NCBI RefSeq assembly: GCF_003990445.1
Contig: NZ_REEZ01000009.1
Coordinates: forward strand, 101,861-165,860
Source of the DNA: Pararhodobacter zhoushanensis
Lineage (GTDB): Bacteria > Pseudomonadota > Alphaproteobacteria > Rhodobacterales > Rhodobacteraceae
DNA: 64,000 nt
Direction of reading: 5' to 3'
The notes under the pieces were generated by a model. That model ran no database searches, was not told the origin of the DNA, and worked only from the letters and a program-made list of their open reading frames with translations. A program made the position numbers and the translations under genes. This document shows, in pieces, positions 9,305 to 64,000 of this stretch. How positions within the stretch are numbered: the stretch's first letter is position 1; each line of letters starts with the position of its first letter.

Positions 9305-9311
9305 AACGACA

Positions 9312-9333
9312 AAGGGGGCCGCAAGGCCCCCTT
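9312..9333. terminator. Bidirectional rho-independent terminator
   Basis: AAGGGGGCC and GGCCCCCTT pair around a GCAA tetraloop, with A/T-rich flanks on both sides. It lies between the convergent dppC and PIN-domain genes and can serve both strands. Confidence 0.85.
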
Positions 9334-9335
9334 AT

Positions 9336-9854
9336 TCATTCGACTTCCAAAGCGCGGCCCAATCTGGGCAAATCCGCCTTCTTCATCGCCTTGCGCAGCG
9401 CACGGCCGGACAAGCCCGGCCAGACCCGCGCCACCTCGGCCTCCACCGGCTCGCGCCCGGCCAACCACAACTCCATCACCCAATCATCCGGCGACACTGC
9501 CCGGATCCCGTGATGCGCCAGCGCCCGGCGGGGAAAGTCGCGTAAGTTCAGCGTCAGCAAGACATCCGCCCCCGCCGCAATCGCCGCCGCCAGTACATGC
9601 CGGTCCGCCGCGTCGGGCAGATCGAGCAGGCTCAGATCCCCCGCCGCGCCCTGCCCGTCGGGCCAGCGCGCGCGCATCCGCGCCAGCGCCTCGGCCGCGC
9701 CCGGCTCACCCTTGCGGGCCGTGACATGCAGCCATTCCGCCGCCACGCCCTCGGACCACAGCGGCACGAACAGCCCAGCATCGGCCAGCCCCAGCACCAG
9801 ATCGCGCAGGATCGGCGGGAACAACACGCAGGTGTCGAGAAAGACCTTAGTCAA
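9336..9854 (-). CDS. PIN domain protein, RSP_2648-like
   Basis: This 172-aa protein has a PIN nuclease fold: a first aspartate in VFLDTCVL (D7), a central acidic residue (E35 or E40), DAADRHVLAAAI (D84) and LLTLNLRDFP (D106). PIN proteins are metal-dependent ribonucleases, often VapC toxins, but no antitoxin gene is adjacent. Its start overlaps the stop of an RNA methyltransferase gene by 8 bp. I recall the same pair in Rhodobacter (families named RSP_2648 and RSP_2647), so this is probably a conserved RNA-related operon and not a toxin-antitoxin module. Confidence 0.8.
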   Translation of the reverse strand: MTKVFLDTCVLFPPILRDLVLGLADAGLFVPLWSEGVAAEWLHVTARKGEPGAAEALARMRARWPDGQGAAGDLSLLDLPDAADRHVLAAAIAAGADVLLTLNLRDFPRRALAHHGIRAVSPDDWVMELWLAGREPVEAEVARVWPGLSGRALRKAMKKADLPRLGRALEVE

Positions 9855-47470: not shown

Positions 47471-48064
47471 TCATTCAGACAGCGCGATTTGTACCGGCAA
47501 TCCAAGCGTCATGAGCCGTGCAAGCGGCTCAGGCGTCAACAGCGAAACGCGCGCACCGGGTGCTGGTGCGGGGGTGTACCCGTCGAAGGACCAGTGCCAC
47601 CAGCCCGACTCGGTGCGCAACACCGGCACCTCTTCGTTGAGGATCATCGCTCCCTCAGGCACACTCTTGCTTGCCACCTCGACCAGCCGCCGCTCGCGCC
47701 CGTTGCGCCGGGCGGCATCAAGCCGCGCGTCGATCTCATCAGCCCGGCGCTCGCCATACTCGCCTTCCCACAGCGCCCGAAACCGCAGCCAATCGGCATG
47801 GCGACACTCGGCACAGGGCCGGTGGCCCGCCGCATAGGCGGTGGCTTCATCAAGGAAAAACAACTCGGTATAACGCCCGGGCTGCAACAATGCCCGCTTG
47901 CGGCCCTTGAAGTCGGTCACGCAGGTGATCCACCGCTTGACCGGATACCAGCGCCGGATCTTGCCGCCCGCGTCATGCAGGCACCCCCGGTTCCCGAACC
48001 ACACCCCGCGCTGTGGCACGGCGTGACACTGGCCCAAAGGATCGACACGGTTCTGATGCGGCAT
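47471..48064 (-). CDS. Conserved protein of unknown function with Ada-like zinc-binding Cys motif
   Basis: The 197-aa protein begins MPHQNRVDPLGQ and has GNRGCLHD (C28), ITCVTDF (C48), and FFLDEATAYAAGHRPCAECRHADW (C84, C87, over two lines of the motif). The AAGHRPCAECR element resembles the GYRPCKRCRP end of the Ada N-terminal zinc domain, so a zinc-binding fold is plausible. The rest is not recognised. Similar proteins are widely conserved in Proteobacteria by recollection, with no known role. Confidence 0.75.
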   Translation of the reverse strand: MPHQNRVDPLGQCHAVPQRGVWFGNRGCLHDAGGKIRRWYPVKRWITCVTDFKGRKRALLQPGRYTELFFLDEATAYAAGHRPCAECRHADWLRFRALWEGEYGERRADEIDARLDAARRNGRERRLVEVASKSVPEGAMILNEEVPVLRTESGWWHWSFDGYTPAPAPGARVSLLTPEPLARLMTLGLPVQIALSE

Positions 48065-48156
48065 CTTTCACGCCCTCGTGAAACCAGCGACGGGGTCTTG
48101 CGAAGCGCGCGAAAAAGGCGCTGGGTTTCTGACTGTTCGACTCAACCGGTGTCCCC

Positions 48157-48558
48157 ATGATGGCGCAACTGCTGCGTCTTGTCCCGCTGGCTCTGCTGGT
48201 GCTGCTGATGGCAGCGCCCGGACGCTTTGCGCCGGGGTCCGAGGCGCAGGCGCTCATCGCGCCGCTGACGGCGATCACGGTTGCCGATGCCTCCGACAAA
48301 CACCCGACACCCTCAACTCCGCCGCTACCCGCGCTTGTGCCGGTCGCGACAACTGCACCCCACCCTGCCCTCAGCGCGCGTCTGAGCCTGCAGCCGTGCC
48401 TTGCAGATCCTGTCCTCGACTACCCCTACGCGCGCGCCTTTGCCCGTGCGCCACCCTTGCCTGTCCTTCGCCAGAGCCACACTCATTCCCTTGCGAGGAC
48501 AGCATGTTCAAATACCCCGGACTCACCATCTTCCTGGCGTGCATCGCCCTATTCATGA
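48157..48558 (+). CDS. Possible exported proline/alanine-rich protein (133 aa)
   Basis: The frame starts with a convincing signal-peptide-like stretch (MMAQLLRLVPLALLVLLMAA) and then a Pro/Ala/Thr-rich tail without domains. Its last third runs across the start of the better supported 30-aa gene at 48504 in another frame. No clear ribosome-binding site is seen. It may be a real small secreted protein or chance coding. Confidence 0.3.
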   Translation: MMAQLLRLVPLALLVLLMAAPGRFAPGSEAQALIAPLTAITVADASDKHPTPSTPPLPALVPVATTAPHPALSARLSLQPCLADPVLDYPYARAFARAPPLPVLRQSHTHSLARTACSNTPDSPSSWRASPYS

Positions 48559-48596
48559 TCTACGCCATCACGTCGCTGATCATTCACCCGGCCTAG
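48504..48596 (+). CDS. Single-pass membrane microprotein (30 aa)
   Basis: An ATG at 48504 with GAGGA five bases upstream opens a 30-codon gene: MFKYPGLTIFLACIALFM, then YAITSLIIHPA. The product is one hydrophobic helix with a short N-terminal charged cap, like known accessory microproteins of oxidase or transport complexes. The partner is unknown. It is immediately followed by the nested inverted repeat at 48605-48688, which would end its transcript. Confidence 0.6.
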   Translation: MFKYPGLTIFLACIALFMIYAITSLIIHPA

Positions 48597-48604
48597 ACCA
48601 ACCC

Positions 48605-48688
48605 GCGACGGTGCGCTCAAGCGCACCCTACCGGCACCTTGGGCGTGGCGTTGCAAACGGTGTAGGGTGCGCTTCAGCGCACCGTCGC
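48605..48688. repeat. Nested inverted repeat with GTAGGGTGCGC arms, probable bidirectional terminator
   Basis: Two 27-bp arms (48605-48631 and 48662-48688) are complementary with one mismatch, and each arm itself contains GGTGCGCT/AGCGCACC as a small hairpin. It lies directly between the 30-aa gene and the convergent histone-deacetylase-family gene, whose stop it abuts. The GTAGGGTGCGC core is a sequence I have seen in intergenic repeats of many Proteobacteria. Confidence 0.85.
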
Positions 48689-49810
48689 TTACACCATCCC
48701 GGCGATCCGGTCGCGCAGTACCGCAACGCCCGTCTCAACCTCTGGACGCACCACGCCCGCGCGCGGGGCGTCCAGCAGCGTTTCGAACCACGCTTTTGGC
48801 GGGTTGCGACCGGCTGCACGGCGTGGCCAGACCAGCGCGTCCATCAGGGCGACCGCTTCGGGTGGCAGCCGCTCTGGCACGTCGAACCCGTTGAGCGTGG
48901 CCCAGACCCCGGTCCAGCAGCGCGCCACCGACCACGGGTTATAGCCCCCGCCCCCGGTCACGATCAGCCGGTCGGTCATCCCCTGCACCGCCTTCACCAC
49001 CGCCAGATGCGCGCCATTTGACAGCGCCAGCCGTGACAGCGGGTCTTCCAGCACCGCATCCGCCCCGCATTGCAGCACGATGGCCTCGGGCCGGAATGCC
49101 TCCAGCGCCGGCAGGATCAACCGGTCGCGCACATGCGCCATTTCGCTGTCGTTGAACCCGCGCGGCACCGGCAGGTTCAGCGCATTGCCGCCGCCGTCAT
49201 CCTCGAGCGCGCCGGTGAACGGCCAGCGCCCATCCTCGTGCACCGAGATCAGCAGCATGTCGCGATCCCCGCCCAACCCCGCCTGCACCCCGTCGCAGTG
49301 ATGCGCGTCGATGTCGACATAAGCCAGCCGCCGCAGCCCCAGCCTGCGCAGGTGCAGCAGCGCCAGCACCACGTCATTGAGGTAGCAAAACCCGTTCGCC
49401 CGCCCGGCCATCGCGTGATGCGTCCCGGCCCCCGGCACATGGACCACGCCGCCGCCCCGCACCATCTCGGCCGCCAGCATAGCGCCCCCCGCGCTGGTCG
49501 CCGGGCGGCGGTACATCAGCGGATGCACGGGGTTCGACAGCGTACCCAGCCCGTAGGTCAGGCGCGTCGGCTCATCCACCACGCCCTCGGCCTCGGCCGT
49601 CAGCAGTGCTTGCAAATAGTCCGGCGTGTGAAACCCCATCAGCGCCGCAGGGCGCGCACGCGGGCTGGTGATATAGACCGCCCCCGGCAACCACCCCAAC
49701 ACCCGCGCCAGATCCATCACTGTCGAAACCCGCGGGATTGCCAGCGGATGATGCCCGCCAAAGGGTTCGGCGCGGTAAATCTCGGACCCGATGAAGCGCG
49801 GACGCCTCAG
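48689..49810 (-). CDS. Histone deacetylase/acetoin utilisation (AcuC) family deacetylase
   Basis: The 373-aa zinc amidohydrolase has HHAMAGRANGFCYLNDVV (H131, H132), YVDIDAHHCDGVQ with metal ligands D168 and H170, and GGGGYNPWSV. Family members remove acetyl groups from lysine or polyamines. No ATG fits the conserved start FIGSEIYR; an in-frame CTG at 49810-49808, overlapping the peroxidase stop as CTGA, is the most likely start, while the frame stays open into the peroxidase gene to 49927. Confidence 0.85.
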   Translation of the reverse strand: MRRPRFIGSEIYRAEPFGGHHPLAIPRVSTVMDLARVLGWLPGAVYITSPRARPAALMGFHTPDYLQALLTAEAEGVVDEPTRLTYGLGTLSNPVHPLMYRRPATSAGGAMLAAEMVRGGGVVHVPGAGTHHAMAGRANGFCYLNDVVLALLHLRRLGLRRLAYVDIDAHHCDGVQAGLGGDRDMLLISVHEDGRWPFTGALEDDGGGNALNLPVPRGFNDSEMAHVRDRLILPALEAFRPEAIVLQCGADAVLEDPLSRLALSNGAHLAVVKAVQGMTDRLIVTGGGGYNPWSVARCWTGVWATLNGFDVPERLPPEAVALMDALVWPRRAAGRNPPKAWFETLLDAPRAGVVRPEVETGVAVLRDRIAGMV

Positions 49811-50316
49811 TCCGGCAGATTGGCCTCGATCAGCCGGGTGATGCGGTCGCTGGTCGGGCGCGTCGTCGAGCCCCAGAAGCCCAGCAGAGATCCGTCCGGC
49901 CCGATCAGCGCCTTGTTGAAATTCCACGTCGGTTCAACCCCGTGTTCCTGCGCCAGCCAGCGGTAAAACGGATGCGCCTCTGGCCCGGTCACCGGGGTGA
50001 TGCGCGTCAGCGGCACATCCACGCCCAGTTCGATCCGGCAGTATTGCTCGACCGCATGGTCATCGTCCAGTTCCTGACGAAAATCATCCGACGGCACCGC
50101 CAACACCACCAACCCGCGCGGGGCGTAAGTCTCAAAGAGCGCCTGCAGATCGGCGTATTGCGGCGTGAAGCCGCACAGCGAGGCGGTGTTGACCACCAGC
50201 ACAGGCTGGCCGCGCCAGTCGTCCAGATCGTAGGTCGCGCCGTCAATGGCGGTGAAGGTGAATGCCTGTGCAGGCAATGCCAGCACAAGCAGGAAGAAAG
50301 ACACAAGGAAACGCAT
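49807..50316 (-). CDS. Periplasmic glutathione peroxidase-like protein
   Basis: This 169-aa thioredoxin-fold peroxidase has a signal peptide (MRFLVSFFLLVLALPAQA) and the peroxidatic Cys48 in VNTASLCGFTPQY, plus W131 in WNFNK. The usual FPCNQF motif reads VPSDDF, so the resolving Cys and catalytic Gln are missing there; activity may rely on other thiols. An ATG at 50328 would add four residues. It is coupled to the deacetylase-family gene downstream. Confidence 0.83.
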   Translation of the reverse strand: MRFLVSFFLLVLALPAQAFTFTAIDGATYDLDDWRGQPVLVVNTASLCGFTPQYADLQALFETYAPRGLVVLAVPSDDFRQELDDDHAVEQYCRIELGVDVPLTRITPVTGPEAHPFYRWLAQEHGVEPTWNFNKALIGPDGSLLGFWGSTTRPTSDRITRLIEANLPD

Positions 50317-50521
50317 GACGAGGACCATTGCAAACGCGGGCCGCGCACGTCGCCCGCATTCAAAGGGTAGAGCGTCGAAAGCCTCAGACAAGCCAGAACC
50401 CCGTACCAGAAGACCGCCGCAAAAAATTGGTGAAAAAAGTTTTCGTCCCTGAAACTTGTGCTGAAAACCTTACGTACCTTCCTCACACGATCGCAAAATG
50501 GTCCAAACAAAGGAAGCACCG

Positions 50522-50935
50522 ATGAAACTCTTCACCCTTGCCACCCTCGCCACGACCCTTGCTGCGACCCCCCTGCTGGCCGACGATCACATGGCGCCGA
50601 TGGTTGAAGCCTCGAACCAGAGCGTGGCCAATGGCGTCGTGAGCGCGACCAAGATCGTCGCTCCCGCGAATGGCTGGATGGTCGTCCATCGCACTGACGC
50701 CGAAATGCGCCCCGGCCCGGTGGTTGCCTATGCCCCGATCCGCGAAGGCGAGACCACGGATGTCGCGGCGATCCTGACCGAAGCCGTCGCCCCCGGCGAT
50801 ATGCTGATGCTCATGGTCCATGGCGAAGCAGGCGGCATGTCGACCGGTATCTTTGAATACACCCTTGGCGCGTCCGAGGATGGCCCGCTGCGCATTGACG
50901 GCAATCTGGTGATGACGGTGATCACCGCCGAATAA
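50522..50935 (+). CDS. Exported DUF7282-like protein
   Basis: The 137-aa protein starts at an ATG preceded by AAGGAAG and has a signal peptide ending near LLADD. The mature part (EASNQSVANGVVSATKIVAP, then GWMVVHR and a beta-rich C-terminus) resembles DUF7282 domains, small beta-sandwich secreted modules of unknown role. A strong terminator follows. It is a single-gene unit divergent from the peroxidase. Confidence 0.72.
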   Translation: MKLFTLATLATTLAATPLLADDHMAPMVEASNQSVANGVVSATKIVAPANGWMVVHRTDAEMRPGPVVAYAPIREGETTDVAAILTEAVAPGDMLMLMVHGEAGGMSTGIFEYTLGASEDGPLRIDGNLVMTVITAE

Positions 50936-51015
50936 GGATTACCGCCGCCAGGTCAGCAGCGGTTTGCTTGCGTAACGAGTGATTGATCACGAGTGAATGT
51001 CCTGTACCGAGTATC

Positions 51016-51044
51016 ACCGGGCCGCCCCCAGCGGCCCGGTATTT
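51016..51044. terminator. Rho-independent terminator
   Basis: ACCGGGCCGC pairs with GCGGCCCGGT around CCCCA, followed by ATTTT. It lies between the convergent DUF7282 gene and the 148-aa gene. Confidence 0.9.
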
Positions 51045-51074
51045 TCGTGCCGGACCGGGGCAGAAGCGCCACGC

Positions 51075-51521
51075 TCACACAGCGACAGGCAGGCCTTGCG
51101 GCAGCAGTCTTGTCAGGCCGATGGTGTCGAAGGCGTCCCACCCGGCATCCGGGCGCACGCCGACCCGCTCGAGCGCGGCATTGACACTGGCGTGCCCTGC
51201 GCTCACCGGCATGGTGCGTTCGCAACCGTGATATACCGTCGCCCATTGGACGCTGTCGTTGTCCAGATCCTCGGTGTGGATCAAGGCGACCGGGTCCAGC
51301 CCCAGTTCCGACGCAAAGCGCAGGGTGACGGGTTTGTCGGGGGCCATGTCAGACAACTGTCGATCCTCGACCTCCAGCTTTCGCGCGCTGGCACGTGCCA
51401 GATCGGGGTTCAGCGCCACGACCACGAAATCGCCCGCGTCGAGCAGGGTGAGACCCAGTTTTGCGGCGGCCACGGCATCGCCGGGTCCGCGCGCAACCAG
51501 AGCCGAAAAACCGTGCGCCAT
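51075..51521 (-). CDS. Hypothetical protein, 148 aa
   Basis: The product starts MAHGFSALVARGPGDAVAAA and shows alternating helical and strand segments, with LDAGDFVVVALNPD in the middle and a long acidic-to-neutral C-terminus. No signal peptide, membrane segment or catalytic motif is seen and I do not recognise the family. Codon use looks like its neighbours and the frame is free of stops, so it is probably real. Confidence 0.55.
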   Translation of the reverse strand: MAHGFSALVARGPGDAVAAAKLGLTLLDAGDFVVVALNPDLARASARKLEVEDRQLSDMAPDKPVTLRFASELGLDPVALIHTEDLDNDSVQWATVYHGCERTMPVSAGHASVNAALERVGVRPDAGWDAFDTIGLTRLLPQGLPVAV

Positions 51522-51669
51522 GCCTTGTCACTCCCGCCTTGTGCCACTGCTCGATGCTGCACTGCGGCACATCGAGCGGTCAAGCATGCGACGCGCATTG
51601 CCCCGCCCAGGCCGCGCAATTATGCGGAGATGCCGAAAGGTTAACCAATTCAGAAACGCAGCGCGGGGG

Positions 51670-52065
51670 TTACCCGGTATAGTCCGCGTCCGAGACGTGC
51701 TCTTGCCAGTCGACGCTGACGCCGTCGATGGCCTCCTGAAACGCGATATGGGTCATCGCCGTGTCCGGCCCTGCCCCGTGCCAATGGCGTTCGCCCGCCG
51801 CAAACCACACCACATCACCGGGTCGGATTTCTTCGATCGGGCCACCCTCGCGCTGGGCACGGCCACAGCCTTCGGTGACGATCAGCGTTTGGCCCGCCGG
51901 ATGGGTGTGCCACGCCGTGCGCGCGCCCGGCTCGAACGTCACCCGGACGCTGATCACCGTACCCGGAGCGTCGGCAGTATTCAGGGGATCAAGGCGCACA
52001 GCGCCGGTGAAATAACCCTCTGGCCCCGTTTTCGACGGGGCGGTTCCGGCGCGCATGATACGCAT
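51670..52065 (-). CDS. Cupin domain protein
   Basis: This 131-aa protein is a small single cupin with metal-binding motifs [22 protein letters not shown] and [19 protein letters not shown]. It resembles quercetin-dioxygenase-like or mandelonitrile-lyase-type cupins of the carboxymuconolactone family; the reaction is unknown. The ATG at 52065 follows AGGAG; the longer frame to 52275 has no such site. The 206-bp gap to the helicase gene contains nothing I can recognise. Confidence 0.83.
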
Positions 52066-52271
52066 GGGGTCTCCTGCTGAAGGGGGCGAGCCTGCCGGCT
52101 CACGGCGGCTGCCAGTGTGTGCAAGCCTTGCGCGAATGTCCATCGGCGGCTTCCATCGGTTCTTTAAATCGTCAAACCCTTTAGGGAAATACCGGACCAT
52201 CAGCCTGTGCAGAGGGCCACTGCGTAGCATCAACAGGCGCGGCCAGCCCGGCGATGAGCGCGCTCGCGATT

Positions 52272-55200
52272 TCACTCATCGATGATGTCGAAGTCATCTT
52301 CTTCGTCCGAAGGCTTGCTGCGCCTTTGTCGCGTCGGCGCACCTGCTCTCTTCTTGCCCAGCGCGTAGTCCGCCATGGCGGGAGACGGATGGCCGGGAAA
52401 CCCTGCCTTAAAGCCCTGCACCATCTCCCTGTAGCTGAGGCCCAATGCAGACATCTTGCAAAGCTCGCGCCCATCGGTCCCGTCCTTAAGAACGAGGCCG
52501 CCACCCTTGGGCACCACATCAAGGCCCCGGTCTTTAAAGTTGTTGATCAATTCGTCCCACGACCGGCTTTCATGGTGGATGCGCTGCGCAAGCGCGGCGA
52601 GCGCATCCGGATCATCGGAGTTGACCGCTCTCGCAAGCTGCGCGGTAGGGACCCCAGAACAGCTGGCTGGGTTAGACTGTGGGTTAGACAGAACAAAAAC
52701 ACTCTTGGCTGCTGTGGCGGGCACCGTCTCGGCAGAGCCCACAGGTCGCTGAGGAGCAAAGACCAGCTCAGGCAGGACAGTCTCCCAGGCATCTCGACGC
52801 GCGTAGTGCGCAAATTGCTCGTCCCCATCGGACTTGCGCCACTGGACAACAGCTCCAACTGAACCAGTGAGCAGGACCTGCCCCGGCGGATGCTCCCATG
52901 ACTTCGACATGCGCCCCAACAGGCGGCCATGTCGGTCCAGCAACACCCAGGTAGGGGCTCGGTACTCCAGATGCAGCGGGTCGCCCACCCGGCATTCCTG
53001 GATCGCGCGGTGAACCTCGTGCAAATCACCCTGGCGACCGGCATACGACAGGTCCGAATGTCTGAGGTTTGGCAGATAGTAGACCCTCGAAGGGAGTCCT
53101 TCAGCCGGAAAATGCAGCACGACCTGTCTCTCAACGACTGAGCGATTGCCAGATTTCAGGAACGCATGCTTTCCCGAGGCCATGACGATCAGGCCCTTCT
53201 TGGCGCGGGTCATCGCGACGTAGAAAAGTCGGCGCGGTGCATCACGGTCTTCGTTCTTCGATGCCCGGTCCCAACCGCCATCCAAAATAGCGACATGATC
53301 GAACTCAAGCCCTTTGGCCCGGTGGGCTGTTAGCAGGAGCAGCCCGCGCTGCTCGCCCCGTGTCTCACGGGACCATTCGGCGATCCATTCGACGATATCG
53401 GGCACCGGCATCGTCTTGGTCTTCAACTCTCTCGCCAGTTCGGCGATGCCTTCAGCCAACAGGTCGACCCACTTGTTGCCAGATTGCTCGTTGAGGAGGT
53501 CAATGATGTCGGCGATGCCCAGCAGTTCTCCCTGCCTCCGGCGCAGTCCTGACACCAGCGCCTGCGTCTCGCGCAGTCGCCAGATGTTTGGCAGGTCTTG
53601 GTTGGCCAATTCGACCTTGATACCGAGCTGTTCTGCATAGGCCCGGACAGCGCCAAGCCTCTTCCAGTCACGAGAAATGATGGCGGTACGGGCCCAGGAC
53701 CAATCCGGATCCAGCTTCGACAGCCGAACCATCTCGTCAACAGCTGCGATTGCCTGAATTGCATCGCCTGCCGGCACAGTCAGCACCTGGACCCTGCCCT
53801 GTCCGACCTGATCCTCTTTTTTGAGTACTCCGCCCTCGGGATCGTTCCTGCGATCTCCGTTGATCCTTATCTCGTGATCTACTTTCATCCGATCCGGCGC
53901 CGCCGAAATCACCGCGTTGGCCGCCGCAATGATGTGGTTGGTTGAACGATAGTTCTCGACCAGGAACGCCGGCCGCGCCTTGTAGTCCTCTTCGAACTTG
54001 CGGATGAACCCGACTGAGGCGCCGTTGAAGGCATAGATATTCTGGTCGTCGTCCCCGACAGCGAACAGGCTGAGTTTCAGGTCGGCATCCTCAAGAGATC
54101 TGCCAGCGACTGCCGAGATGAGCTGATACTCTTCCGGCCCGATGTCCTGATATTCGTCGACAAGGATCCAGCGATAGCCTTGGATCAGTGTGTCCCTCTG
54201 CGCTTCGGCTTCGGATTTCGACAGCCCTTCGCCCTCCAACTGCCGCACCGCTTCCATGACGATGTCATCGAAATCTTCAGTGTCTGCCCGCTGACCTACG
54301 AAACTGGCCCCCACCAGCTTCATCGCCAGCGCATGACAAGTCGAGACGCTGACGCCAATGGCATCGTCCCCGACCAGAGCACGCAACCGCACGCGAATTT
54401 CGGCTGCTGCGTGCCGGTTGTAGGCGAGAACCAGAATGCCTCGCGGATCTTCGCGCTTCATGCGCAGCAGATAGGCAATCCGGTGGACCAGCACCCGCGT
54501 CTTGCCTGATCCCGGCCCCGCCAGGACAAGAACGTTCGTGCGGTCCCGGTCATCTGTCACGATCTCCTGCTGGATCTTGTTGCCCAGCTTCTCGACGATC
54601 GCAGCCCAGGAGGCAGTGGTGGTCTGCCGCCGAACCTCGCGGCCCATGCCTGGCATCCACCGCTTCATGAACTGCTCCTTGTTGAGCAGGAAGTAATCCT
54701 CCGACAGGCGTGACGCATCGCTCATCGCCCGCAGCCCGGTTTCGGCATAGGTCACCATGACATGGGTCTGGAGTGTCTGCTCGCCGTAGTGCTCTTCCAG
54801 CGGTGCGAAATGCGTCTGGGTGAACTGCCCCCCTGCCGGATCGAGATAGACCGTCATGGCAGAGCGGAAGACCGTAAGCCCCTTTCCGAGCGTCACCACG
54901 CCCTGTTCATGCAGCCACATAAGCGCCCGCTCCATGAGCTTGGTCATGTCAGCAATGCCACTGGTCTTCAGGATGGCATCCTGATTCAGCTGTGCCAGCA
55001 GGTCGCCGATTGTCGTATCGACCTGAAGATCCTTGCCCCGCACGCCCTTGTCGAGTCGGCCTGTCAGATAGTTCAGGAGCAGTTCGGCCGCTTGCCACCG
55101 CAAGTTTGCCGTTGCCCGAACTGTTTTCCAGGGCCGCACCAGAGTGACCATCAGCGTGTTACGACCGACCTTTCGCAAAGAGATGTTCCCGCGACCGCCG

Positions 55201-57851
55201 TCATGGCTTCGGCCATCAAGGGCAATCCCCCGCACAAGCCTGTCGACCGCATCGGGCCTGACATCCGCGTGGTTCTTGTCGCGCAAGCGCTGACAGGTTT
55301 CAGAAAGATTCAGTGGAACAGGGGTTCGGTCGTCGAGGTCCGGCGCCAGCTCCTGCATCAGTTCGATCAGATCGCCCTCCAGTGCCGAAGCCTGAGACAG
55401 TCTCTGCGCCGAGGAATGGGCGACCCCGACATGCGCAAAGACCGTCATCGCCACGTCGTTGCGAACGATGCCGAGAGTTTCCAGCGTCGCCATGGCCTTT
55501 GGCAGCGCACCCGGTGGAATCCCTGCCACCCCGCAAAGCTCATCGGTCGACACGCCCTCGTCAGCCGGGGCCGACACCAGATGCGCCACGATGGCCAGAA
55601 GCTCATTGCGATGCGCTAGCGTCAGGTCTGCCCCGGCCAACCGCTGCTTCGCCTCATCCACAGATCGCACCCGCAGGGAGGACGGGAACACCTGAACCCG
55701 GTTCTCTTCCCGCGATACAAGATGCGCCTCCTCCAGCCAGGACACGGCAGTCTTGACCCGGGTGTCGTCCGTGGCGCTGTCGCGCTCGAACTCATGATCT
55801 CTCTCGGACCGGACGATCTCACCCGATGTCGCAACGACCTTACCGGTCTTTTTCGTCCGCTCGTCGATCCGACGCAGCGCCTTGAGGATTGCCCCGATTT
55901 CATGCCGCGCAAGGCGCGAACTGGCCGTCAGACGGAACTGGCGTTCCACGTCTTCGGCGGAGAACAGCAAGACGCAATGGGCGTCCTCCCGGTCCCGTCC
56001 CGCGCGTCCGGCCTCCTGAAGGTAGTTTTCCAGCGACCCCGGAATATCGGCGTGGACGACCAGCCGGATGTCGGGCTTATCGATCCCCATACCGAAGGCA
56101 TTTGTGGCGGCGATCACTCGCAAGTCACCCACACGGAATCGTTCCTGCACGGCCTGCTTGTCATCCGCGCTCATCCCGGCGTGGAAATGCGCCGCTTCCA
56201 CGTGTCGAGATTTAAGAAACTCGGCCACCCTCTCGGTTTCCCTGCGAGACGAGCAATAGACGACGGCTCCGGAGCGCCCCTCGGCCGGTAACAGTTCGTC
56301 GAGGACGCGCATCACATCCGACAGTTTGGAGGCCTTGTTTGTCGGCCGCACGTCGAACGCCAGGTTTGTCCGTGAAGCACCCCCGTCAAGCGGCAGCAGC
56401 TCGACCCCAGCCTTGGTCTTGAAATGTTCGATGATATCCGCAACCACCTCGGGCTTTGCGGTTGCGGTGAGGCAGAGTACAGGCGCGGGTGTCTGATCCC
56501 CAGAGAACTCCCTGATGAAGCGACCGAGGTAGCGATAGTCGGGCCGGAAATCATGCCCCCATTTCGACACGCAGTGTGCCTCGTCAATCGCCCAGAGACC
56601 CACCTCGCGCTGTGCCAGGACGCTGCGAATCGAGGTACTGCGAAGTTGCTCGGGAGAGATGATGAGGATCCCGGCGTCGCCCATTCGAACCTTGTCGAGC
56701 GCATCCTGACGTTCCGGCATGGACATCATGCCGTTTATCGTGACGGAGCAGGAGATACCGGCTCGCTCCATCCCCTGAACCTGATCCGCCATCAAAGCGA
56801 CCAGGGGAGAAATCACCACTGTCAGCGCGCCGATCTTGTCAAAGCGTGACAGCGCCGGCACCTGATAGCAGAGCGACTTGCCCGTCCCTGTCGGCAAGAT
56901 CCCCAGCAGGCTGTTGCCAGACATGGCTTCGTCGACGATGCGCTCCTGCAGCGGGCGTCCCTCGGGATCCACTGGCTTTGGGCGGAAGCCGGGAAACCCG
57001 AACCACCTTTCCAAGGCGCGCACCGGGTCGTTCTGCTCAGCGCACCAGGTGCAGCGCGGATCCTTGCAGGAGGTGTCGCGTACATGCCTGACAATCAGCG
57101 ATGCCTCACGAAACTGCGCCCGAACCCAGGGTGGCATGACGGAATCGCCGCCTGCCACAGTAATCCATGAAAGGGCATAGGCCATCGGCCAGCCGTTCTG
57201 AGGGCTGCTCAGGCGTCGCAGTGTTTGTTCGACACGCAATCCGCAGGCACGGCCTTCGAGCAACCGCGTGATCGCGGCACCCGCCTCTTCATAGCTAGGG
57301 CAGTTCCGACCGCGCAGATAGGAAAACACGGCGTCGAAACCACCGGCGCGTTCCATCCGCGTCGTCAGATAGTGGTAGGCAGTCACCGCGTCGGGTTCCT
57401 CTTCCACCAGTTTAGCAAAGGCATCCAGCTGATTGGCGAGCACCTCGAACACGAGGCGTGCGTCCAGCTCGGGATCATTCACATGCCCTGTGGCCAGACG
57501 TCCGTCATGATAGTGCTTCACGAGGTGGTGGTACGGGTTTCGCGGGAAGGCCAGTGGATTCAGCCACAGCGTGTCGATGGGTGCCTGAATAATCCTGCTG
57601 AGACCGGGTCGCCTCGCGATAAGATGCTCCAGATCGTGCTTGAGGAAATTGTGACCAATCGGATACGCCACGTCGCCGATCTGCGCTTCGAGCCGATCAA
57701 GAAATCCTTCGGAAATTCCTCCCATCGTCTTCAGCGCCGGCCGTTCATCCCTGCGCACCGCCGCCAGACCAAAGATTTTTGCCTTGGAAGGATCGACTTC
57801 AAGATCGATTGACAGGCACCGGGACATTAATTGGTTGTGACGCATTTCCAT
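52272..57851 (-). CDS. DEDD-exonuclease-RecQ-UvrD triple fusion helicase (1859 aa)
   Basis: Domains in order: an RNase H/DEDD-like exonuclease (SIDLEVD with D16 and E18; [12 protein letters not shown] with D73; [11 protein letters not shown] with D130); a Cys knuckle (C262, C267, C270 after H256); a RecQ SF2 helicase ([10 protein letters not shown] at 317-326, DEAH at 423-426, QEAGRAGRD at 612-620); winged-helix-like segments to about 810; a UvrD-type SF1 helicase (LAGPGSGKT 1110-1118, VDEYQD 1231-1236, [12 protein letters not shown] 1266-1277, HRAKGLEF 1510-1517, [10 protein letters not shown] 1544-1553); and an acidic tail ([12 protein letters not shown]). Both helicase cores look intact. 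ATG at 57827 is an alternative start. It follows the DUF4011 gene by 120 bp. Likely nucleic-acid processing in phage defence or repair. Confidence 0.9.
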
Positions 57852-57971
57852 GAACTTATGAGTAACGACGAGTATGCGCCGAAAAAAGCCCTATTGATTT
57901 CGTGGTAGGGTCCGAACGCAATGACGTGCCTGATGCGACGGGCAGTGATGCCCCTGCCCGATCGCTCCTCT

Positions 57972-60900
57972 TCACTCACGGGCAGTAGATCGCCATCCCA
58001 AGCACTCCGACAGGTAAGAACGCGCGTCGGCCGACAATCTGGCAATACAGGCGTGGCGCGCCAGATCGAGAACGGGGTCCTCGCTCTTGCTCAGCTCAGC
58101 CGCATGGCGATCATAAAGCTCCGCGATCTCCGTGCGGGAAATATCCCGGATGGAGCGATCCAGTCCCGACCGGAAACCGACCCTGTCGGCTTTCGTGCCC
58201 ACCGCCCAAAGGAAATCGACACCATTCTCGGGATGCAGCTCAACCCGACCAAGCGCCCTGGACACCTGCTCGGAGATCCGCCTTCCCGTCCTTTGCCACC
58301 CATGCATCCCAGAGACCCGCTTGCCCAGCAAGGCAACCGGCATGGGCCCTTCGCGCTCGACCACGCCCGCGATCAGGCGCTCAAGGACGGGAATGTAGTC
58401 CGCATCGTAAAACCTTTCGGGATCGGGGCTGGTTTCGCTCGAACCAGCTCTGCCCACCTCCGGCCTGGCAGCTGACGGCGCTGCACGGGCAAACTGTGCC
58501 TCCTGCCGGACAGGCTCTGACGGTGCGATGTCTCCTTCAACGCCCACCTCCACGATCGGCAGTTCGACCTCAGCAGCCTCTGCTTCCTCGGCCTCATGTG
58601 AGACCTCGATCTCATCGGCATCTTCCGCGAGGACGGATTCGCGCGCCGCGTCTTCTTCGGCCCGCTTGGCGCGATCCGCCTCGAGGTGCTCCGTCAGCGC
58701 GGTGTGGATGCGTTCGACCACGGCCGCAGGATTGCGGAACCAGTCGGTCGACCAGATCCGGAAGATCGTCCAGCCAAGGTTTTCCAGCACCGCTTGCCGC
58801 ACCTTGTCCCGGTCCCGAGCCGTGGCAGAACCGTGATAGGTCGCCCCGTCACACTCGAGCCCGGCAAGATAGACCCCCGCATGGTCCGGATGCACGACAC
58901 CCAGGTCGATGCGGAAGCCCGAGACGCCGATCTGTGGACGCAGCTCCCAACCCTTCGCCTCGATGGCCGCCTTGATCGCGGCCTCGAAGAAATTCTCGAC
59001 CGGCCCAAGAGACCCATCGTCCTGCGCTGGAAGCGCCACAGGACCACGCGCTGCAAAATCGAGAAAGCCCTTCAGGTGCCTCACGCCCACGGCCTTGGTG
59101 CGTGTCAGGTCGATCTGATCGGCCCGGACCGAGGCAAAGATGTGCATTTCCGCGCGCGCGCGTGTCACGGCCACGTTCAGGCGCTTTTCGCCGCCTTCGC
59201 GGTTTAAGTCACCAAAGACCATCGAGAGCTTACCAGCGGGGTCAGGCCCGAACGTGATCGAGAACAGCATCACGTCCCGCTCGTCCCCCTGGATGTTCTC
59301 AAGGTTCTTTACGATGACCGGCTCTTCCCGTGCATCCTCGAAAAACCATTCCAGATCCGGGTTCTTCCGCCGCTCCTCGTCCAGCAGGTCGAGGATGAGC
59401 CCCTGCTGCTCGGCATTGAAGGTGATGACACCCAATGTCTGCCGATCTTCCTCTGGCAAGGTAAGCCATTCATTCAGGCGGCGAACCGTCATGCGCGCGA
59501 TCGCGCGGGCTTCGGCCTCGTTGGTCCGGCCTTGGCCCCGCGCATAGACGCCATCGACCTGGTGCAGGCTCACCGCTTCGGAGGCCGTTGCCGGAGACGG
59601 GAAAGTCACCAGACGGCCGCCGTAGTAATGCCAGTTGGAGAAAGCGATGAGCGCCTCGTCGCGGCTGCGATAATGCCAGTCGAGGCGCTGCGTCGGAATG
59701 CCTGCCGCGGCGACCTCGTCCAGGATGGACGCCAGATCGCGCTCGGCGTCCGGCAGATCGTCCTCATCAGCTTCACTGCGCCCGAACCTGTTGGAGGGGG
59801 GCATCTGCTTCGGGTCGCCGACGATGATCGCCTGCTTGCCCCGCGCGATCGCACCAATCGCGTCCCAGGTGGTGATCTGGGAGGCCTCATCAAAAATCAC
59901 CACGTCGAAGGCCGCTTGCCCCGCAGGGAGGTACTGCGCCACCGAAAGCGGGGACATCAGCACGCAGGGGGCCAGCTTGGTGAAGGCGTCAGGCATTTCC
60001 GAGATCAGCGAGCGGATCGGCATGCTGGGCCGCTGCAGCCCAAGCTGATGCCGCAGCGTGCCAAGTTCAGAGCGGCGCGCGACGGCATCCTGGGCTGGCA
60101 AGCCATGCTGGATGCGGGACAAGACCTGCCCCGCCGCCATGCCCGTTGCACGATCATCCAACTCCCGGAAGCGCTTGATTGCGTCCTCGTGCGACCAGTG
60201 GGAGAACCCCCGCAATTCAGGCTGCGCATCCATGGCCTGCGGCAGCCACCAGGCCGCATAGGCCGAGGCGAAGGCTGCATCGACATCGCCCTCGATCTGG
60301 CCTTCTTCGACTGCGAGCACGAGGGCCTCAAGCCCTGCGCCGCTGGCTTGTGTACGGACTTCGACCCACCGGGTCCAATCCTGAAGGTGCTCCTTGTTGT
60401 CCTGGATGGCCTGCAGAGATGCGAGCAACTCCGACAGGGCCATCCCCTCGGGCGAGGTATGCGCCGTCTGCGCGAAGGCCCCGGCAAGCTCCTGCCAGCT
60501 TTCGTGCTTGCGCTGGAAGAGCGTGATCGCGTTCCGCAGGTCACCGCCGTTCCGTTGGGCAAGACTCTGGCAGGTCAGATCCCAACGGGCGGGATCGGCG
60601 ACCATGGGCGCGATCTCGGCGAGTACCGTCCTCATCGCCCGCGCCTGGTCCATCCAGTCAGCGAGGCGAGCTGGATCCGTTTCCACCCCCTTGACCACCG
60701 GACACCCGGTGAGCGGAGTTGCCTCAACCTCGGCTCGGGTGCGCTTGGCGTCCGCCAGCGCGGCTATATCGGATCGGGGATCGGCCTTTCCGCCCTCTGC
60801 ATAAGTCTGCAAGAGCTTGCGCATCGAGGATTTGGCAAAGATCGAGAACGGCCACATCTTCGTCTGTGCAAGTCGCCAGTTGGCATCGAGTTGATCCAGC

Positions 60901-63863
60901 GGAATGCTTTCCAGCCGCGCCATCGGATAGCTGGCAGAGGTTCGAGCGGCTGCAGCGGTATAGGCGGCAAGTTTGTCCGTCAGCATCGCTGCCTGCGCCT
61001 GCATCTCGACGACATCCGGCGTCAGCGACCAGCTTACATCCTCGCCACTCTCGGGGATCGACAACAGGAGCAGCAGCGGCGCGACCTCGGAAGCCTCGCC
61101 CGTGCCCGCCCAGGTCAGCCCGGCATGGCGCGCGAGCGCCTTGGCGGCCTCAGCCAGTTCACGGGTGGCCGTGCCCAGCTTCGCGCCTCGTTCCAGAAGT
61201 TCCGCCTGCCAGCCAAAGGACCACTCCTCCGCCTGCACCAGCGGCAGCGGCTTTCGGCCCGCGATGATCTCCTGGCACCGGCCAAGCGCTTCGGCCAGCT
61301 TCCGCAGATGCAGGTAGCTTTCCGCATCATGCGCGTCCTTGTTGGCGAAGCCCAGGCGGAACGGCTGTTCCTGACCGGCAGCCTTGCCGATCGCCTGGAA
61401 GACGCTGAAGCCTTGCGTGCCCTTCTTGTGCAACGCCGTGACATAAGTGTTCAGCTGTTCGCGGGTGACCGTCAGGTCATCTGTCACCGTGATCCAATCG
61501 GTGTCCGACGCGCTGGCCGCTCGCGCCCAGCTGCGGCCCAGCTGAGACAGTACCGTTTTCCGGTCAGCCTTGTTGGAATGCAGTTCCAGCACGGCATCGC
61601 CCAGCCCGTGCGACGCAAGCCGCCGCTGCACCACGTCCAGCGCCGCCGACTTCTCGGCTACGAAAAGGACGGTCTTCTGCATGGCGAGGCATTGCGAGAT
61701 GATATTGGCGATGGTCTGGCTCTTGCCCGTGCCGGGCGGCCCGATAAGGACAAAGTCGTGCCCCTCCTGCGCAGCCAGAACGGCCGCGAGCTGGGAGGAG
61801 TCAGCGGGCAGCGGCGTGAACAGGTCGCGCGGCGCCAGCCTGCGGTCAACATCGACCGCGACCGGTAGACCCGGCGTCCCTTCGGCCAGGAAGGGCTCGG
61901 TCGGGTTGTCCACCAGATGCTTCACCAGCGCGCTCTCGCGTAAGCTGTCGGTCCGCTCCACCAGGTCCTTCCACATCAGGAACTTGGCGAAGGAGAAGGT
62001 CGATAGCGCCAGCTCCTCGACCACCTCGAAACCAGCAACATCGCGCACCTTGCGGCGCATGATCTCGAAGATGCGCGGCAAGTCGAAACCGCTATCGTCC
62101 CGGGGAAGATCGCCCTCCAACTCGGGCACTTTCAAGTCAAAATCGCGCTTGAGAAACTCCAGCAGCGTCGTGTTAAAACGCACGTCGTCCTCGTGATGCT
62201 CGATCACGAACTCCGACTGCGCAGACTTACGCGATATTTTCACCGGCACCAGCAGCAGCGGCGCGCGGTAGCTGCGCGTGTCCCCTTCGGACTTTTTCCA
62301 ACGCAGGAAACCAGCTGCCAGGAACAGGGTGTTCGTGCCGCCTTCCTGCATGTCACTCTTGGCGCGGCGGTGCAGTTCGAGCAGCCGACGCTCGCTTTCC
62401 TTACGGGTCAGCGGGACCGCGATCTGGCCCTTCGCGAAGGCATCCTTCGCGACCTCCTCAAGTAACTTGGGTTCCTCCTTCACCAGAAGGTCGCGCGTGC
62501 CGACAGGATCCTCGTCCTTCAAAGCCAGCGCGCGGAACTTCTTCCCATCTGCCAGCTGATCCTCCAGTGCCGAGACATCCGGGCACAGGAAGGGGAGCGT
62601 CTGCTTGCTGTCCTTGAAGTTCAGCAGCCGGTTGCGCAGCGACAGGTCCAGAAGCTTGCGTTGCCAGCGAGAGATCCGGTCCCCCGGCGTCGAGGCTTCA
62701 TCCTCGATCAGTTCGCCCGGCAGCAGGCCCAGATCCAGCGGGCGCGGCAGGGCTGCCGGACTTGCAGCGACGTCTTCCGCCCCGGCCTCCAGCTCGGAAC
62801 GGTGACTGGCAAGCGGGCGAATCCGGGCCGCCCGGGCACGCCGGATGTCGACTGCCATGACAAAGCTGTGCTCATTGCGCTCGGATGTCAGCTCGCGCGC
62901 CGTATCAACCGCCTGCTCGAACCCGACGCTGGGTTTCTTCGTCAGCAAGGTGGTCTCCATGACCACGAACTCGCGCGCATCGATGGCCTTGCGGACCGTC
63001 ATCACGTCGGGCTCGCTGATGGTCCCGAAATCCCGCTGCGTTAGCCAGACCCCGGTCCAGGCATGCCCGTCGGAGAGGAGCACGACGGGGTTGAGGCCGG
63101 CGGCCTCGAAGCAGGCGGCCAGCAGAAGAGCGCTGTCCAGACAGGTGGCAAGTCCTTCGGACTTAATGCGACCGGGGTCGCGCACCTTCTGGCCGTTCAA
63201 CTCGAAACTTGCCGGAGGCACCGCATAGGTAAGCCCCATGCCGGTCGCGGCCGACCAGATAGCCCCGGCCAGCATCCACGCACGCGACGGGTCGCGGGAC
63301 TGATATCCATCCATGGCACCGCTCTGCCCGGCACCCTCCAGTAGCCGGCTGGCCTCCTTTAGGACGCCAGCGACAACCGTGTCATTGGGAGAGACAAAGG
63401 CCGCAAGCAGATGCGCCATGTCGCCGACACCACCCCATTCGTCTCGGGCCAGCATCTCGATCGGGCGCTTCTCATTCAGCAGCTCTGTCTCGCCTTGCTT
63501 GACGACGAACTGCAGCTCTCCCCACTCGGCCTCGTTGAGACCGCCGAGGATCACCGTGTCCAGGGGCGTTTCCAGGTCGCGCAGCTCTTGTCGTTGCCCC
63601 GGCGCCAGTCGATCCACCGTCCAGTTCTTCGGGCGGATCAGGCTTGGACTGCATGTCAGGTCGAGAGTGATATTCTCCAGCGACGCATCTGAAAGGTTAT
63701 GCAGCACGACTTTTTTCAGAACCGAGACACCGTTCTGGGACGATGCAAAGTTTACTTTCTGAGCGACGGACAGCTCCAGAACAAGCTGGTCACGCGCCTC
63801 TTCCCCAACCGTATCAAACGACATTCTTACGCTACCTGACCTTTTAATCCCCAAGTCAGTCAC
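57972..63863 (-). CDS. DUF4011-SF1 helicase-Vsr-like nuclease-DUF3320 protein (1963 aa), Hhe-like
   Basis: An N-terminal region (about 1-350) contains a transglutaminase/papain-like core: C241 in ATCLDSALLLAAC, H267 in DGHAWTGVWL and E303 in VMETT. DUF4011 follows (RWQRKLLDLSLRNRLLNF near 399). The SF1 helicase has IGPPGTGKSQT (707-717), VVIFDEASQI (1321), VGDPKQMPPS (1348) and NVAVTRARAE (1563). A Vsr/MTES_1575-like nuclease follows (E1627, D1653, E1670 and D1672 in FEAAI, RIDLGV and LECDG), then an acidic linker and DUF3320 (1818-1871). I recall this DUF4011-helicase-Vsr-DUF3320 layout as the Hhe defence protein. Start is GTG at 63863 or ATG at 63824, the latter after AGGTAG. Confidence 0.9.
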   Translation of the reverse strand: MTDLGIKRSGSVRMSFDTVGEEARDQLVLELSVAQKVNFASSQNGVSVLKKVVLHNLSDASLENITLDLTCSPSLIRPKNWTVDRLAPGQRQELRDLETPLDTVILGGLNEAEWGELQFVVKQGETELLNEKRPIEMLARDEWGGVGDMAHLLAAFVSPNDTVVAGVLKEASRLLEGAGQSGAMDGYQSRDPSRAWMLAGAIWSAATGMGLTYAVPPASFELNGQKVRDPGRIKSEGLATCLDSALLLAACFEAAGLNPVVLLSDGHAWTGVWLTQRDFGTISEPDVMTVRKAIDAREFVVMETTLLTKKPSVGFEQAVDTARELTSERNEHSFVMAVDIRRARAARIRPLASHRSELEAGAEDVAASPAALPRPLDLGLLPGELIEDEASTPGDRISRWQRKLLDLSLRNRLLNFKDSKQTLPFLCPDVSALEDQLADGKKFRALALKDEDPVGTRDLLVKEEPKLLEEVAKDAFAKGQIAVPLTRKESERRLLELHRRAKSDMQEGGTNTLFLAAGFLRWKKSEGDTRSYRAPLLLVPVKISRKSAQSEFVIEHHEDDVRFNTTLLEFLKRDFDLKVPELEGDLPRDDSGFDLPRIFEIMRRKVRDVAGFEVVEELALSTFSFAKFLMWKDLVERTDSLRESALVKHLVDNPTEPFLAEGTPGLPVAVDVDRRLAPRDLFTPLPADSSQLAAVLAAQEGHDFVLIGPPGTGKSQTIANIISQCLAMQKTVLFVAEKSAALDVVQRRLASHGLGDAVLELHSNKADRKTVLSQLGRSWARAASASDTDWITVTDDLTVTREQLNTYVTALHKKGTQGFSVFQAIGKAAGQEQPFRLGFANKDAHDAESYLHLRKLAEALGRCQEIIAGRKPLPLVQAEEWSFGWQAELLERGAKLGTATRELAEAAKALARHAGLTWAGTGEASEVAPLLLLLSIPESGEDVSWSLTPDVVEMQAQAAMLTDKLAAYTAAAARTSASYPMARLESIPLDQLDANWRLAQTKMWPFSIFAKSSMRKLLQTYAEGGKADPRSDIAALADAKRTRAEVEATPLTGCPVVKGVETDPARLADWMDQARAMRTVLAEIAPMVADPARWDLTCQSLAQRNGGDLRNAITLFQRKHESWQELAGAFAQTAHTSPEGMALSELLASLQAIQDNKEHLQDWTRWVEVRTQASGAGLEALVLAVEEGQIEGDVDAAFASAYAAWWLPQAMDAQPELRGFSHWSHEDAIKRFRELDDRATGMAAGQVLSRIQHGLPAQDAVARRSELGTLRHQLGLQRPSMPIRSLISEMPDAFTKLAPCVLMSPLSVAQYLPAGQAAFDVVIFDEASQITTWDAIGAIARGKQAIIVGDPKQMPPSNRFGRSEADEDDLPDAERDLASILDEVAAAGIPTQRLDWHYRSRDEALIAFSNWHYYGGRLVTFPSPATASEAVSLHQVDGVYARGQGRTNEAEARAIARMTVRRLNEWLTLPEEDRQTLGVITFNAEQQGLILDLLDEERRKNPDLEWFFEDAREEPVIVKNLENIQGDERDVMLFSITFGPDPAGKLSMVFGDLNREGGEKRLNVAVTRARAEMHIFASVRADQIDLTRTKAVGVRHLKGFLDFAARGPVALPAQDDGSLGPVENFFEAAIKAAIEAKGWELRPQIGVSGFRIDLGVVHPDHAGVYLAGLECDGATYHGSATARDRDKVRQAVLENLGWTIFRIWSTDWFRNPAAVVERIHTALTEHLEADRAKRAEEDAARESVLAEDADEIEVSHEAEEAEAAEVELPIVEVGVEGDIAPSEPVRQEAQFARAAPSAARPEVGRAGSSETSPDPERFYDADYIPVLERLIAGVVEREGPMPVALLGKRVSGMHGWQRTGRRISEQVSRALGRVELHPENGVDFLWAVGTKADRVGFRSGLDRSIRDISRTEIAELYDRHAAELSKSEDPVLDLARHACIARLSADARSYLSECLGWRSTARE

Positions 63864-64000
63864 TCATACGAGGATGTGTCTGTCAATTACACGGTCATCT
63901 CGACCAAGAATTGAAAAACGTGCCTAGGCTCAGGACCCATTAATCGTCTTGCGGACTGCTTGGCTGCGTGATTCATGCTCGCGAACTGATGGGGGCAATG

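What the first reader, a model, noticed from the sequence alone, without database searches (positions are those of the whole stretch)
52272..63863. Tandem giant helicase fusions: candidate two-gene defence system
Two minus-strand genes of 5.6 and 5.9 kb, 120 bp apart, each combine a nuclease-like domain with helicase motors: an exonuclease-RecQ-UvrD fusion and a DUF4011-helicase-Vsr-DUF3320 fusion. The second is, as I recall, a known stand-alone defence gene (Hhe); I know of no described system that pairs it with a RecQ-UvrD-exonuclease partner. All helicase motifs look intact. Together they carry three motors, two predicted nucleases and a protease-like module, enough for recognition, unwinding and cutting of invading DNA.
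Basis: partly seen in the sequence, partly recalled or inferred. Interest (0 to 1): 0.88.

Follow-up and report, generated by a model that had tools for sequence, protein, structure and literature searches.

The report
Two defence-island helicase genes, recently neighbours
Two giant DNA-unwinding genes sit side by side in what looks like a bacterial defence island; one belongs to a named anti-phage family and the other is an unnamed helicase-exonuclease, and in the related bacteria examined the two are rarely neighbours, so they look like two separate defence-type genes rather than one conserved two-gene system.

Summary
In detail: two intact minus-strand genes (1859 and 1963 aa), 120 bp apart. 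The upstream gene is not Hhe (792 bits, cut-off 2000) but passes NCBIfam's 'anti-phage protein ProA' (2091, cut-off 1500). The downstream gene (P1) is a DEDD-exonuclease-like/RecQ/UvrD fusion of an unnamed, patchy family (64 of 394 genomes of the taxonomic family). Full ProA lies beside P1 in only 3 of 75 P1 loci, plus one remnant; those placed on a tree form one young clade with the window. Co-occurrence per genome is at chance (2 observed, 1.8 expected). Still, the pair is an 11.7-kb block shared with three named genera, both genes under purifying selection. A sister genome lacks the insert; the island's inferred other half, on another contig, carries SIR2-HerA. P1's neighbours elsewhere match many more defence families than controls (112 against 7). 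ProA's recurrent neighbour is instead an Mre11-Rad50-like pair (11 of 21 loci read). Best reading: two autonomous defence-type genes, recently joined as cargo; ProA known, P1 a good uncharacterised candidate. No structure was obtained and function is untested.

The parts
52272..57851 (-). P1: DEDD exonuclease-like + RecQ + UvrD giant helicase gene, 1859 aa
57372..57830 (-). P1 residues 8-160: DEDD exonuclease-like domain (metal ligands D16, E18, D73, D130; N125 where DEDDh has His)
   Evidence: four ligands invariant in 24 of 24 rows; hhalign to RNase_T prob 93.2
55932..56957 (-). P1 residues 299-640: RecQ SF2 motor (GTGKS at 322, DEAH at 423, QEAGRAGRD at 612)
   Evidence: TIGR00614 312.7 bits, cut-off 219.8
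53172..54584 (-). P1 residues 1090-1560: UvrD-like SF1 motor (GPGSGKT at 1112, VDEYQD at 1231, FYVAMTRA at 1543)
   Evidence: PF00580 138.9 bits
57972..63863 (-). P2: ProA-family anti-phage protein, 1963 aa, GTG start
   Evidence: NF058533 2091.4 bits, cut-off 1500
62904..63266 (-). P2 residues 200-320: transglutaminase-like peptidase module (C241, H267, E303)
   Evidence: architecture in PMC3710099 (passages)
62151..62657 (-). P2 DUF4011
   Evidence: PF13195 166.1 bits
59130..61802 (-). P2 SF1 helicase, residues 688-1578
   Evidence: PF13086, PF13087; motifs
58695..58988 (-). P2 MTES_1575 (Vsr-like) REase
   Evidence: PF18741 117.6 bits; ID and ECDG motifs in 19 of 19 rows
58272..58415 (-). 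P2 DUF3320 (winged-helix region)
   Evidence: PF11784 48.3 bits
57935..57965 (-). hairpin just after the ProA stop codon, kept in the window, L009, L020, L035 and the L010 remnant
   Evidence: MFE about -20 to -22 kcal/mol in 5 of 5; no terminator by consensus scan
52255..63931 (.). block of about 90% nt identity shared with L009, L020, L035; the downstream flank and the last 69 nt of the contig do not match them
47551..52159 (.). chromosomal flank syntenic with a sister genome that lacks the insert
   Evidence: 91.6% to L162 1-4613, then a ribonucleotide reductase gene about 0.3 kb on

Best explanation
Two autonomous, horizontally moving defence-type genes that were placed side by side once, recently, and now travel as an 11.7-kb cassette within defence islands. 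Upstream is ProA, a single-chain DNA-targeting effector: an SF1 helicase translocates on invading DNA, a Vsr-like REase cuts it, the C-terminal winged-helix region binds DNA, and a transglutaminase-like domain may act on a protein. Downstream is a DEDD-exonuclease-like/RecQ/UvrD protein, most simply a DNA-end or fork-processing machine that unwinds phage replication or recombination intermediates and degrades one strand. SHOWN here: architectures, motifs, purifying selection, shared block, rare adjacency, lack of the insert in a sister genome. INFERRED: anti-phage action of both, the substrates, each gene acting alone, the single joining event, and the join of the two contigs that bear the island.
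For: P2 passes the ProA equivalog cut-off. P1 is patchy: 64 of 394 genomes in the family; its N-terminal domain is in 11 of 385 genomes drawn from the class and 16 of 398 from the phylum. P1's nearest neighbours match 112 PADLOC families, 112 control genes match 7. Rare adjacency: 3 of 75 P1 loci plus one remnant. Co-occurrence 2 observed, 1.8 expected, p 0.56; on looser counting 5 against 3.2, p 0.21. The window, L009, L020 and the remnant L010 form one clade (SH-aLRT 99) whose sister L013 is solo; L035, split in frame, was not on the tree. Block limits just outside the two genes. By annotation, solo P1 on a Rhizobium and a Cereibacter plasmid; the closest plasmid ProA relatives, Thioclava, about 83%, are without P1 in 3 of 3 read, of 4 listed. 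Island: sister lacks the insert; the other flank in the own genome is on contig C53, with SIR2 291 bits and HerA 484 bits. dN/dS about 0.1.
Against: The pair is collinear, 120 bp apart, without a promoter or terminator match between, and kept together in at least three genera, which also fits a functional operon. L009 and L035 share more than the pair: 15.7 kb at 93.7%, upstream genes included, so the unit that moves may be larger than two genes. No assay or structure. The C56-C53 join is inferred from synteny. P1 copies also lie near ordinary metabolic genes. Exonuclease activity is uncertain because the general-base histidine is replaced.
Confidence: 0.66

Rival explanations
1. One reading: P1 and the DUF4011 protein form one two-gene defence system, ProA cutting DNA and P1 unwinding and degrading it.
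For: 120-bp spacing on one strand; co-moving block shared with three named genera; both intact and selected in the window.
Against: 3 of 75 P1 loci have full ProA; 0 of 21 ProA loci outside the cassette match P1 at E 1e-30; chance co-occurrence; one clade, and one copy (L010) where ProA is gone but P1 stays open; one paired copy (L035) has P1 split into three frames; dS to L009 0.41 for P1 but 0.27 for ProA, so not strictly one history.
Confidence: 0.14
2. P1 is a DNA-repair or recombination helicase (WRN-like arrangement) that is only accidentally in islands.
For: RecQ and UvrD motors with repair homologues; best PDB sequence matches are RecQ, with BLM, RECQ5 and WRN among them; plain metabolic genes beside some copies.
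Against: The own genome has separate RecQ-like and UvrD-like genes; patchy distribution; defence-rich neighbours; several copies are split into pieces or frames.
Confidence: 0.13
3. Anti-plasmid or anti-conjugation function rather than anti-phage.
For: Relatives on plasmids at E 1e-100: P1 in 23, ProA in 84 of 72,556 records; no phage record of 50,697 matches the P1 N-terminal 300 residues at E 1e-5.
Against: ProA is named anti-phage by NCBIfam; being carried on plasmids does not show the target.
Confidence: 0.07

Closest known systems
NCBIfam NF058533, anti-phage protein ProA
   Same: 2091.4 bits over a 1500 cut-off, profile positions 1-1898 of 1903; transglutaminase-like residues, helicase, REase and DUF3320 kept
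   Different: 11 of 21 relatives' loci read have an Mre11-Rad50-like pair nearby; here the visible neighbour is P1
Transglutaminase / SF1 helicase / Vsr REase / wHTH giant proteins (MTES_1575 type), PMC3710099, 2013; passages read
   Same: The same domain set and the same prediction of defence without a modification gene
   Different: Those carry an N-terminal HEPN domain; none was reported here by Pfam
Hhe (PADLOC PDLC02194, NCBIfam NF042953)
   Same: DUF4011, helicase and Vsr-like REase (content of Hhe recalled)
   Different: 791.7 bits against a 2000 cut-off; PADLOC 541.8 against 1186.8 for PDC-S37
RecQ family helicases, including WRN (exonuclease + RecQ)
   Same: RecQ core 299-640; an N-terminal exonuclease-like domain before RecQ, as in WRN by its name
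   Different: Additional UvrD motor; RecQ equivalog cut-off not met; recalled: the WRN exonuclease is DEDDy; kinship of the exonuclease domains not tested
Gabija GajB, DpdF, PsyrT (defence helicases in PADLOC)
   Same: Helicase-core similarity only
   Different: NF041063 DpdF 199 against 550; no GajA among the genes scanned beside P1 in the window and on C53

Membership tests
ProA (NF058533) | whole-protein score over the curated cut-off and near-full profile coverage | tested here: met
   2091.4 against 1500; 1-1898 of 1903
ProA (NF058533) | transglutaminase-like Cys/His/Glu, SF1 motifs and REase motif, as in 7 other full-length members (none of these is a stated criterion of the model) | tested here: met
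   L062, over the cut-off, lacks the Cys/His
ProA (NF058533) | protects against phage | not testable with these tools
   name only; no paper on ProA in the listings
Hhe | score over NF042953 cut-off | tested here: not met
   791.7 against 2000
RecQ family (TIGR00614) | score over subfamily cut-off | tested here: met
   312.7 against 219.8
Housekeeping RecQ (TIGR01389) | score over equivalog cut-off | tested here: not met
   362.4 against 640.2
Housekeeping gene of the taxonomic family | near-universal presence | tested here: not met
   64 of 394 genomes at E 1e-100
DEDDh exonuclease | four acidic metal ligands | tested here: met
   24 of 24 rows
DEDDh exonuclease | general-base histidine five residues before the last Asp (rule recalled; seen as H in the RNase_T row) | tested here: not met
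   N, S or A in all 38 rows that cover it
Conserved two-gene system P1 + ProA | recurrent adjacency across lineages | tested here: not met
   3 of 75 P1 loci plus one remnant; 0 of 21 ProA loci outside the cassette
Gabija | GajA adjacent | tested here: not met
   none among the proteins scanned beside P1 in the window and on C53
PsyrTA toxin-antitoxin | PsyrA antitoxin partner | not tested
   P1 matches PsyrT by helicase core, 295 bits; antitoxin not searched for

The most novel reading that the evidence does not exclude
ProA normally works with a DNA-end-processing nuclease-ATPase complex of the Mre11-Rad50 kind (the Mre11-like gene follows it on the same strand, 2-13 bp apart, on four Rhizobiales plasmids read), and in this cassette the partner has been replaced by a single-chain exonuclease-RecQ-UvrD machine: an exchange of the DNA-processing partner of a protease-helicase-nuclease effector. 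P1 would then be both a stand-alone defence gene elsewhere and a stand-in partner here.
Probability: 0.1. Interest if true: 0.8.

Novelty: new variant of a known kind. Interest (0 to 1): 0.42.

Why it matters
P1 represents a wide but patchy family of about 1700-1860-residue exonuclease-RecQ-UvrD proteins that the plasmid records read annotate only as 'RecQ family ATP-dependent DNA helicase', although its neighbours match many more known defence families than control genes do. If it protects cells, it adds a WRN-like arrangement with a second motor to bacterial immunity. The ProA to Mre11-Rad50-like association would give the ProA family a testable partner.

Tried and rejected
Hhe identity: rejected by score. 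Conserved two-gene system: adjacency and co-occurrence tests fail. Housekeeping: rejected by distribution. Gabija-, Dpd- or PsyrT-like: only helicase cores match. PDB sequence search with the P1 N-terminal profile gave only chance-level matches, best E 0.29. Promoter or terminator between the genes: none by consensus. Literature: in the listings of ten searches (some searches listed only 20, 10 and 20 of 832, 79 and 714 papers) I saw none on NCBIfam's ProA and none describing the exonuclease-RecQ-UvrD fusion. Only open-licence PubMed Central papers are held, so this does not show absence from print. Passages were read in PMC10250203, PMC3710099, PMC9122126 and PMC5512222; all other papers were seen as listings only.

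Rows dropped: one search left out hits with stops or short spans and L010, L065, L066 (41 rows kept); one search left out rows under 1500 aa and L081, L082 (37 rows; L010 put back; L035 not included); one search skipped L030, L037, L038 and L041, left out ProA itself and proteins under 150 or from 1900 aa up, took only the nearest on each side, and dropped 13 of 125 as near-duplicates; one search dropped L191 (17 stops). The 21 ProA loci leave out L069-L073, which are under the ProA cut-off, and include near-duplicates (L170 and L177; L061 and L063).

Limits: the neighbour control comes from 7 genomes and holds fewer residues (39,981 against 49,356); PADLOC families overlap, so 112 against 7 counts families, not proteins, and only 25 of the 112 were shown. 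The Mre11-Rad50 queries were taken from ProA loci, which favours ProA loci. The 75 P1 loci include a locus that is only a RecQ match (L041), near-duplicates, and two with under 0.4 kb upstream (L022, L038). Gene calls come from a simple ORF picker of mine. The window's genus is not named; it may be one of the three named genera. The AlphaFold job for the P1 N-terminal domain was taken and still not finished: no model, no fold search.

Full report
OBSERVATION. Both genes are present as described: 52272-57851 (-), 1859 aa, and 57972-63863 (-), 1963 aa, with 120 bp between. The contig that holds the window ends at the window's right edge, 137 nt upstream of the second gene's start. Pfam gives P1 two helicases, RecQ-type and UvrD-type, and P2 DUF4011, an SF1 helicase, an MTES_1575 REase and DUF3320. 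The helicase motifs looked for are intact. Against homologues, dN/dS is 0.07-0.12 for P1 (5 comparisons) and 0.10-0.14 for P2 (3 comparisons), so both are kept under purifying selection.

WHAT THE SECOND GENE IS. NCBIfam places P2 in 'anti-phage protein ProA' (NF058533, 2091.4 bits, cut-off 1500), not Hhe (791.7, cut-off 2000). PADLOC's best model is the candidate PDC-S37 (1186.8 bits), above Hhe (541.8). Its N-terminal module carries transglutaminase-like Cys and His and a conserved Glu, present in 7 other full-length ProA members from other genera and in the 3 cassette copies; one further row with that region, L062, lacks them. This architecture, with an added HEPN domain, was described and predicted to act in defence in 2013 (PMC3710099; passages seen). 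I saw no paper on ProA itself in the listings.

WHAT THE FIRST GENE IS. P1 passes the general RecQ-family cut-off but no equivalog cut-off among the 25 of 55 NCBIfam families listed. Its N-terminal region matches no Pfam family at E 0.1, but a profile of 36 P1 family rows aligns to RNase_T domains with 93.2% probability (E 3e-7), while 30 column-shuffled controls gave at most 2.99%. The four metal ligands of DEDD exonucleases are invariant in 24 of 24 rows, and the rows of the wider set that cover the motifs keep them; but the position of the DEDDh general base holds N, S or A in all 38 rows that cover it. So the fold and metal site are likely, and the activity is open. A C-x4-C-x2-C cluster follows at 262-270. 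Relatives over most of the length, at 35-93% identity in their best segment, occur in other genera of the family; P1 N-terminal domains occur in other families of the class and other classes of the phylum; and relatives lie on plasmids of Rhizobium, Cereibacter, Thiothrix and others (23 of 72,556 records).

IS THE PAIR A SYSTEM? In 33 P1 loci of named genomes, full ProA lies upstream in 3 (Tritonibacter scottomollicae, Salipiger mangrovisoli, Alloyangia mangrovi), and one more (Poseidonocella pacifica) keeps only 94 C-terminal residues. Over 75 P1 loci the numbers are the same. In 394 genomes of the taxonomic family, nearly one per genus, P1 is in 64 and ProA over its cut-off in 11; both in 2, against 1.8 expected (p 0.56); with weaker ProA-like proteins, 5 against 3.2 (p 0.21). 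None of 21 ProA loci outside the cassette matches P1 at E 1e-30. On the tree, the window, L009, L020 and the remnant L010 form one clade (support 99) whose sister L013 is solo; L035, whose P1 is split into three frames, was not on the tree. So the juxtaposition looks single and recent.

YET IT MOVES AS A BLOCK. The window and the three named loci share a block at about 90% nucleotide identity that starts 31-68 nt upstream of ProA and ends 17 nt after P1; the window's downstream flank does not match theirs, and upstream only 69-106 nt of the contig remain to compare, without a match. L009 and L020 also part 29 nt upstream of ProA, apart from separate matching stretches further up, whereas L009 and L035 share 15.7 kb, upstream genes included. 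A hairpin just after the ProA stop is kept in all five copies, remnant included. In L013, homology begins about 49 nt before P1, within the intergenic stretch. Synonymous divergence to L009 is 0.41 in P1 but 0.27 in ProA, which suggests that the block is not one undisturbed history. Whether the window's genus is one of the three named ones is not known, so the pair is in at least three genera.

SETTING. A sister genome of the genus matches the window over 47551-52159 and about 0.3 kb further has a ribonucleotide reductase gene, without either giant gene between. In the window's own genome that reductase gene is on contig C53, preceded by about 10.9 kb of extra DNA with lower GC: a Mutator-family transposase, a 1306-aa protein without Pfam or PADLOC match, and a HerA-SIR2 pair (PADLOC 484 and 291 bits). 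The simplest inference is one defence island between the cupin gene and the reductase gene, broken in assembly at the transposase. A distant P1 relative in another genome (L082) also lies beside DNA 79% like this reductase gene. Nearest neighbours of P1 elsewhere (112 proteins) match 112 PADLOC families at 1e-15, among them DISARM, Lamassu, BREX, type I and type IV restriction models, against 7 families for 112 control genes; Pfam also finds ordinary metabolic genes among them. A Gabija-type GajA lies further along the L021 locus.

A BETTER PARTNER FOR PROA. Of 21 ProA loci read outside the cassette, 11 hold an Mre11-like plus Rad50-like pair; of 75 P1 loci, 1 does (Fisher p 4e-8, but the queries came from ProA loci). 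On four Rhizobiales plasmids the Mre11-like gene follows ProA on the same strand within 2-13 bp. Against: Thioclava, the closest plasmid relatives, lack the pair in 3 of 3 read (one has a metallophosphoesterase alone), Paracoccus yeei lacks it, five Rhodobacterales loci lack it (L057, L058, L060, L062, L064; some flanks are cut by contig ends), and the window copy shows none, though its upstream side is cut by the contig end. NCBIfam names no ProA partner among the pairs scanned.

VERDICT. Two defence-type genes, one of a named family and one of an unnamed family, joined recently as island cargo. Defence by P1 rests on its neighbours and architecture; defence by ProA on its family name. Nothing here shows that they work together, and nothing excludes it.

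Noticed in passing
L174, L175, L176, L196, L197, L198 (plasmids) and L055, L056, L059, L061, L063: ProA-family genes lie beside Mre11-like plus Rad50/SbcC/YhaN-like gene pairs of several subtypes; on four Rhizobiales plasmids in tandem, 2-13 bp apart (in L197 only the Mre11-like gene is annotated). Possible ProA operon partner.
   Followed up: partly
L168 (own genome C53:1-14000), 2845-10120: SIR2-HerA pair and a 1306-aa protein without Pfam or PADLOC match, near a Mutator-family transposase: inferred other half of the window's island.
   Followed up: partly
L018, L021, L030, L037, L039, L068; also L088: A divergently oriented methyltransferase plus PLDc-ResIII-DUF3427 (type IV restriction-like) pair sits just upstream of P1 in six loci, some nearly identical, one truncated; a similar protein lies upstream in L088.
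   Followed up: partly
L082, 911-3168: A distant P1 relative lies beside DNA 79% like the ribonucleotide reductase gene that borders the window's island: possible shared insertion hotspot.
   Followed up: no
window 57935-57965: GC-rich hairpin directly after the ProA stop codon, kept in the five cassette copies (one a remnant); no terminator by consensus scan.
   Followed up: partly
L009, L020 and L035 upstream of ProA; L169: A metallophosphoesterase 69-84% alike lies upstream of ProA; TniQ beside it in L020 (related ORF ends in L009, L035), and TniB/TniQ annotated downstream of ProA in L169: possible Tn7-like carriage.
   Followed up: partly
L199 (Rhizobium leguminosarum plasmid): A ProA-family gene interrupted by an IS21 element, in a stretch with IS256 and IS66 elements.
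   Followed up: no
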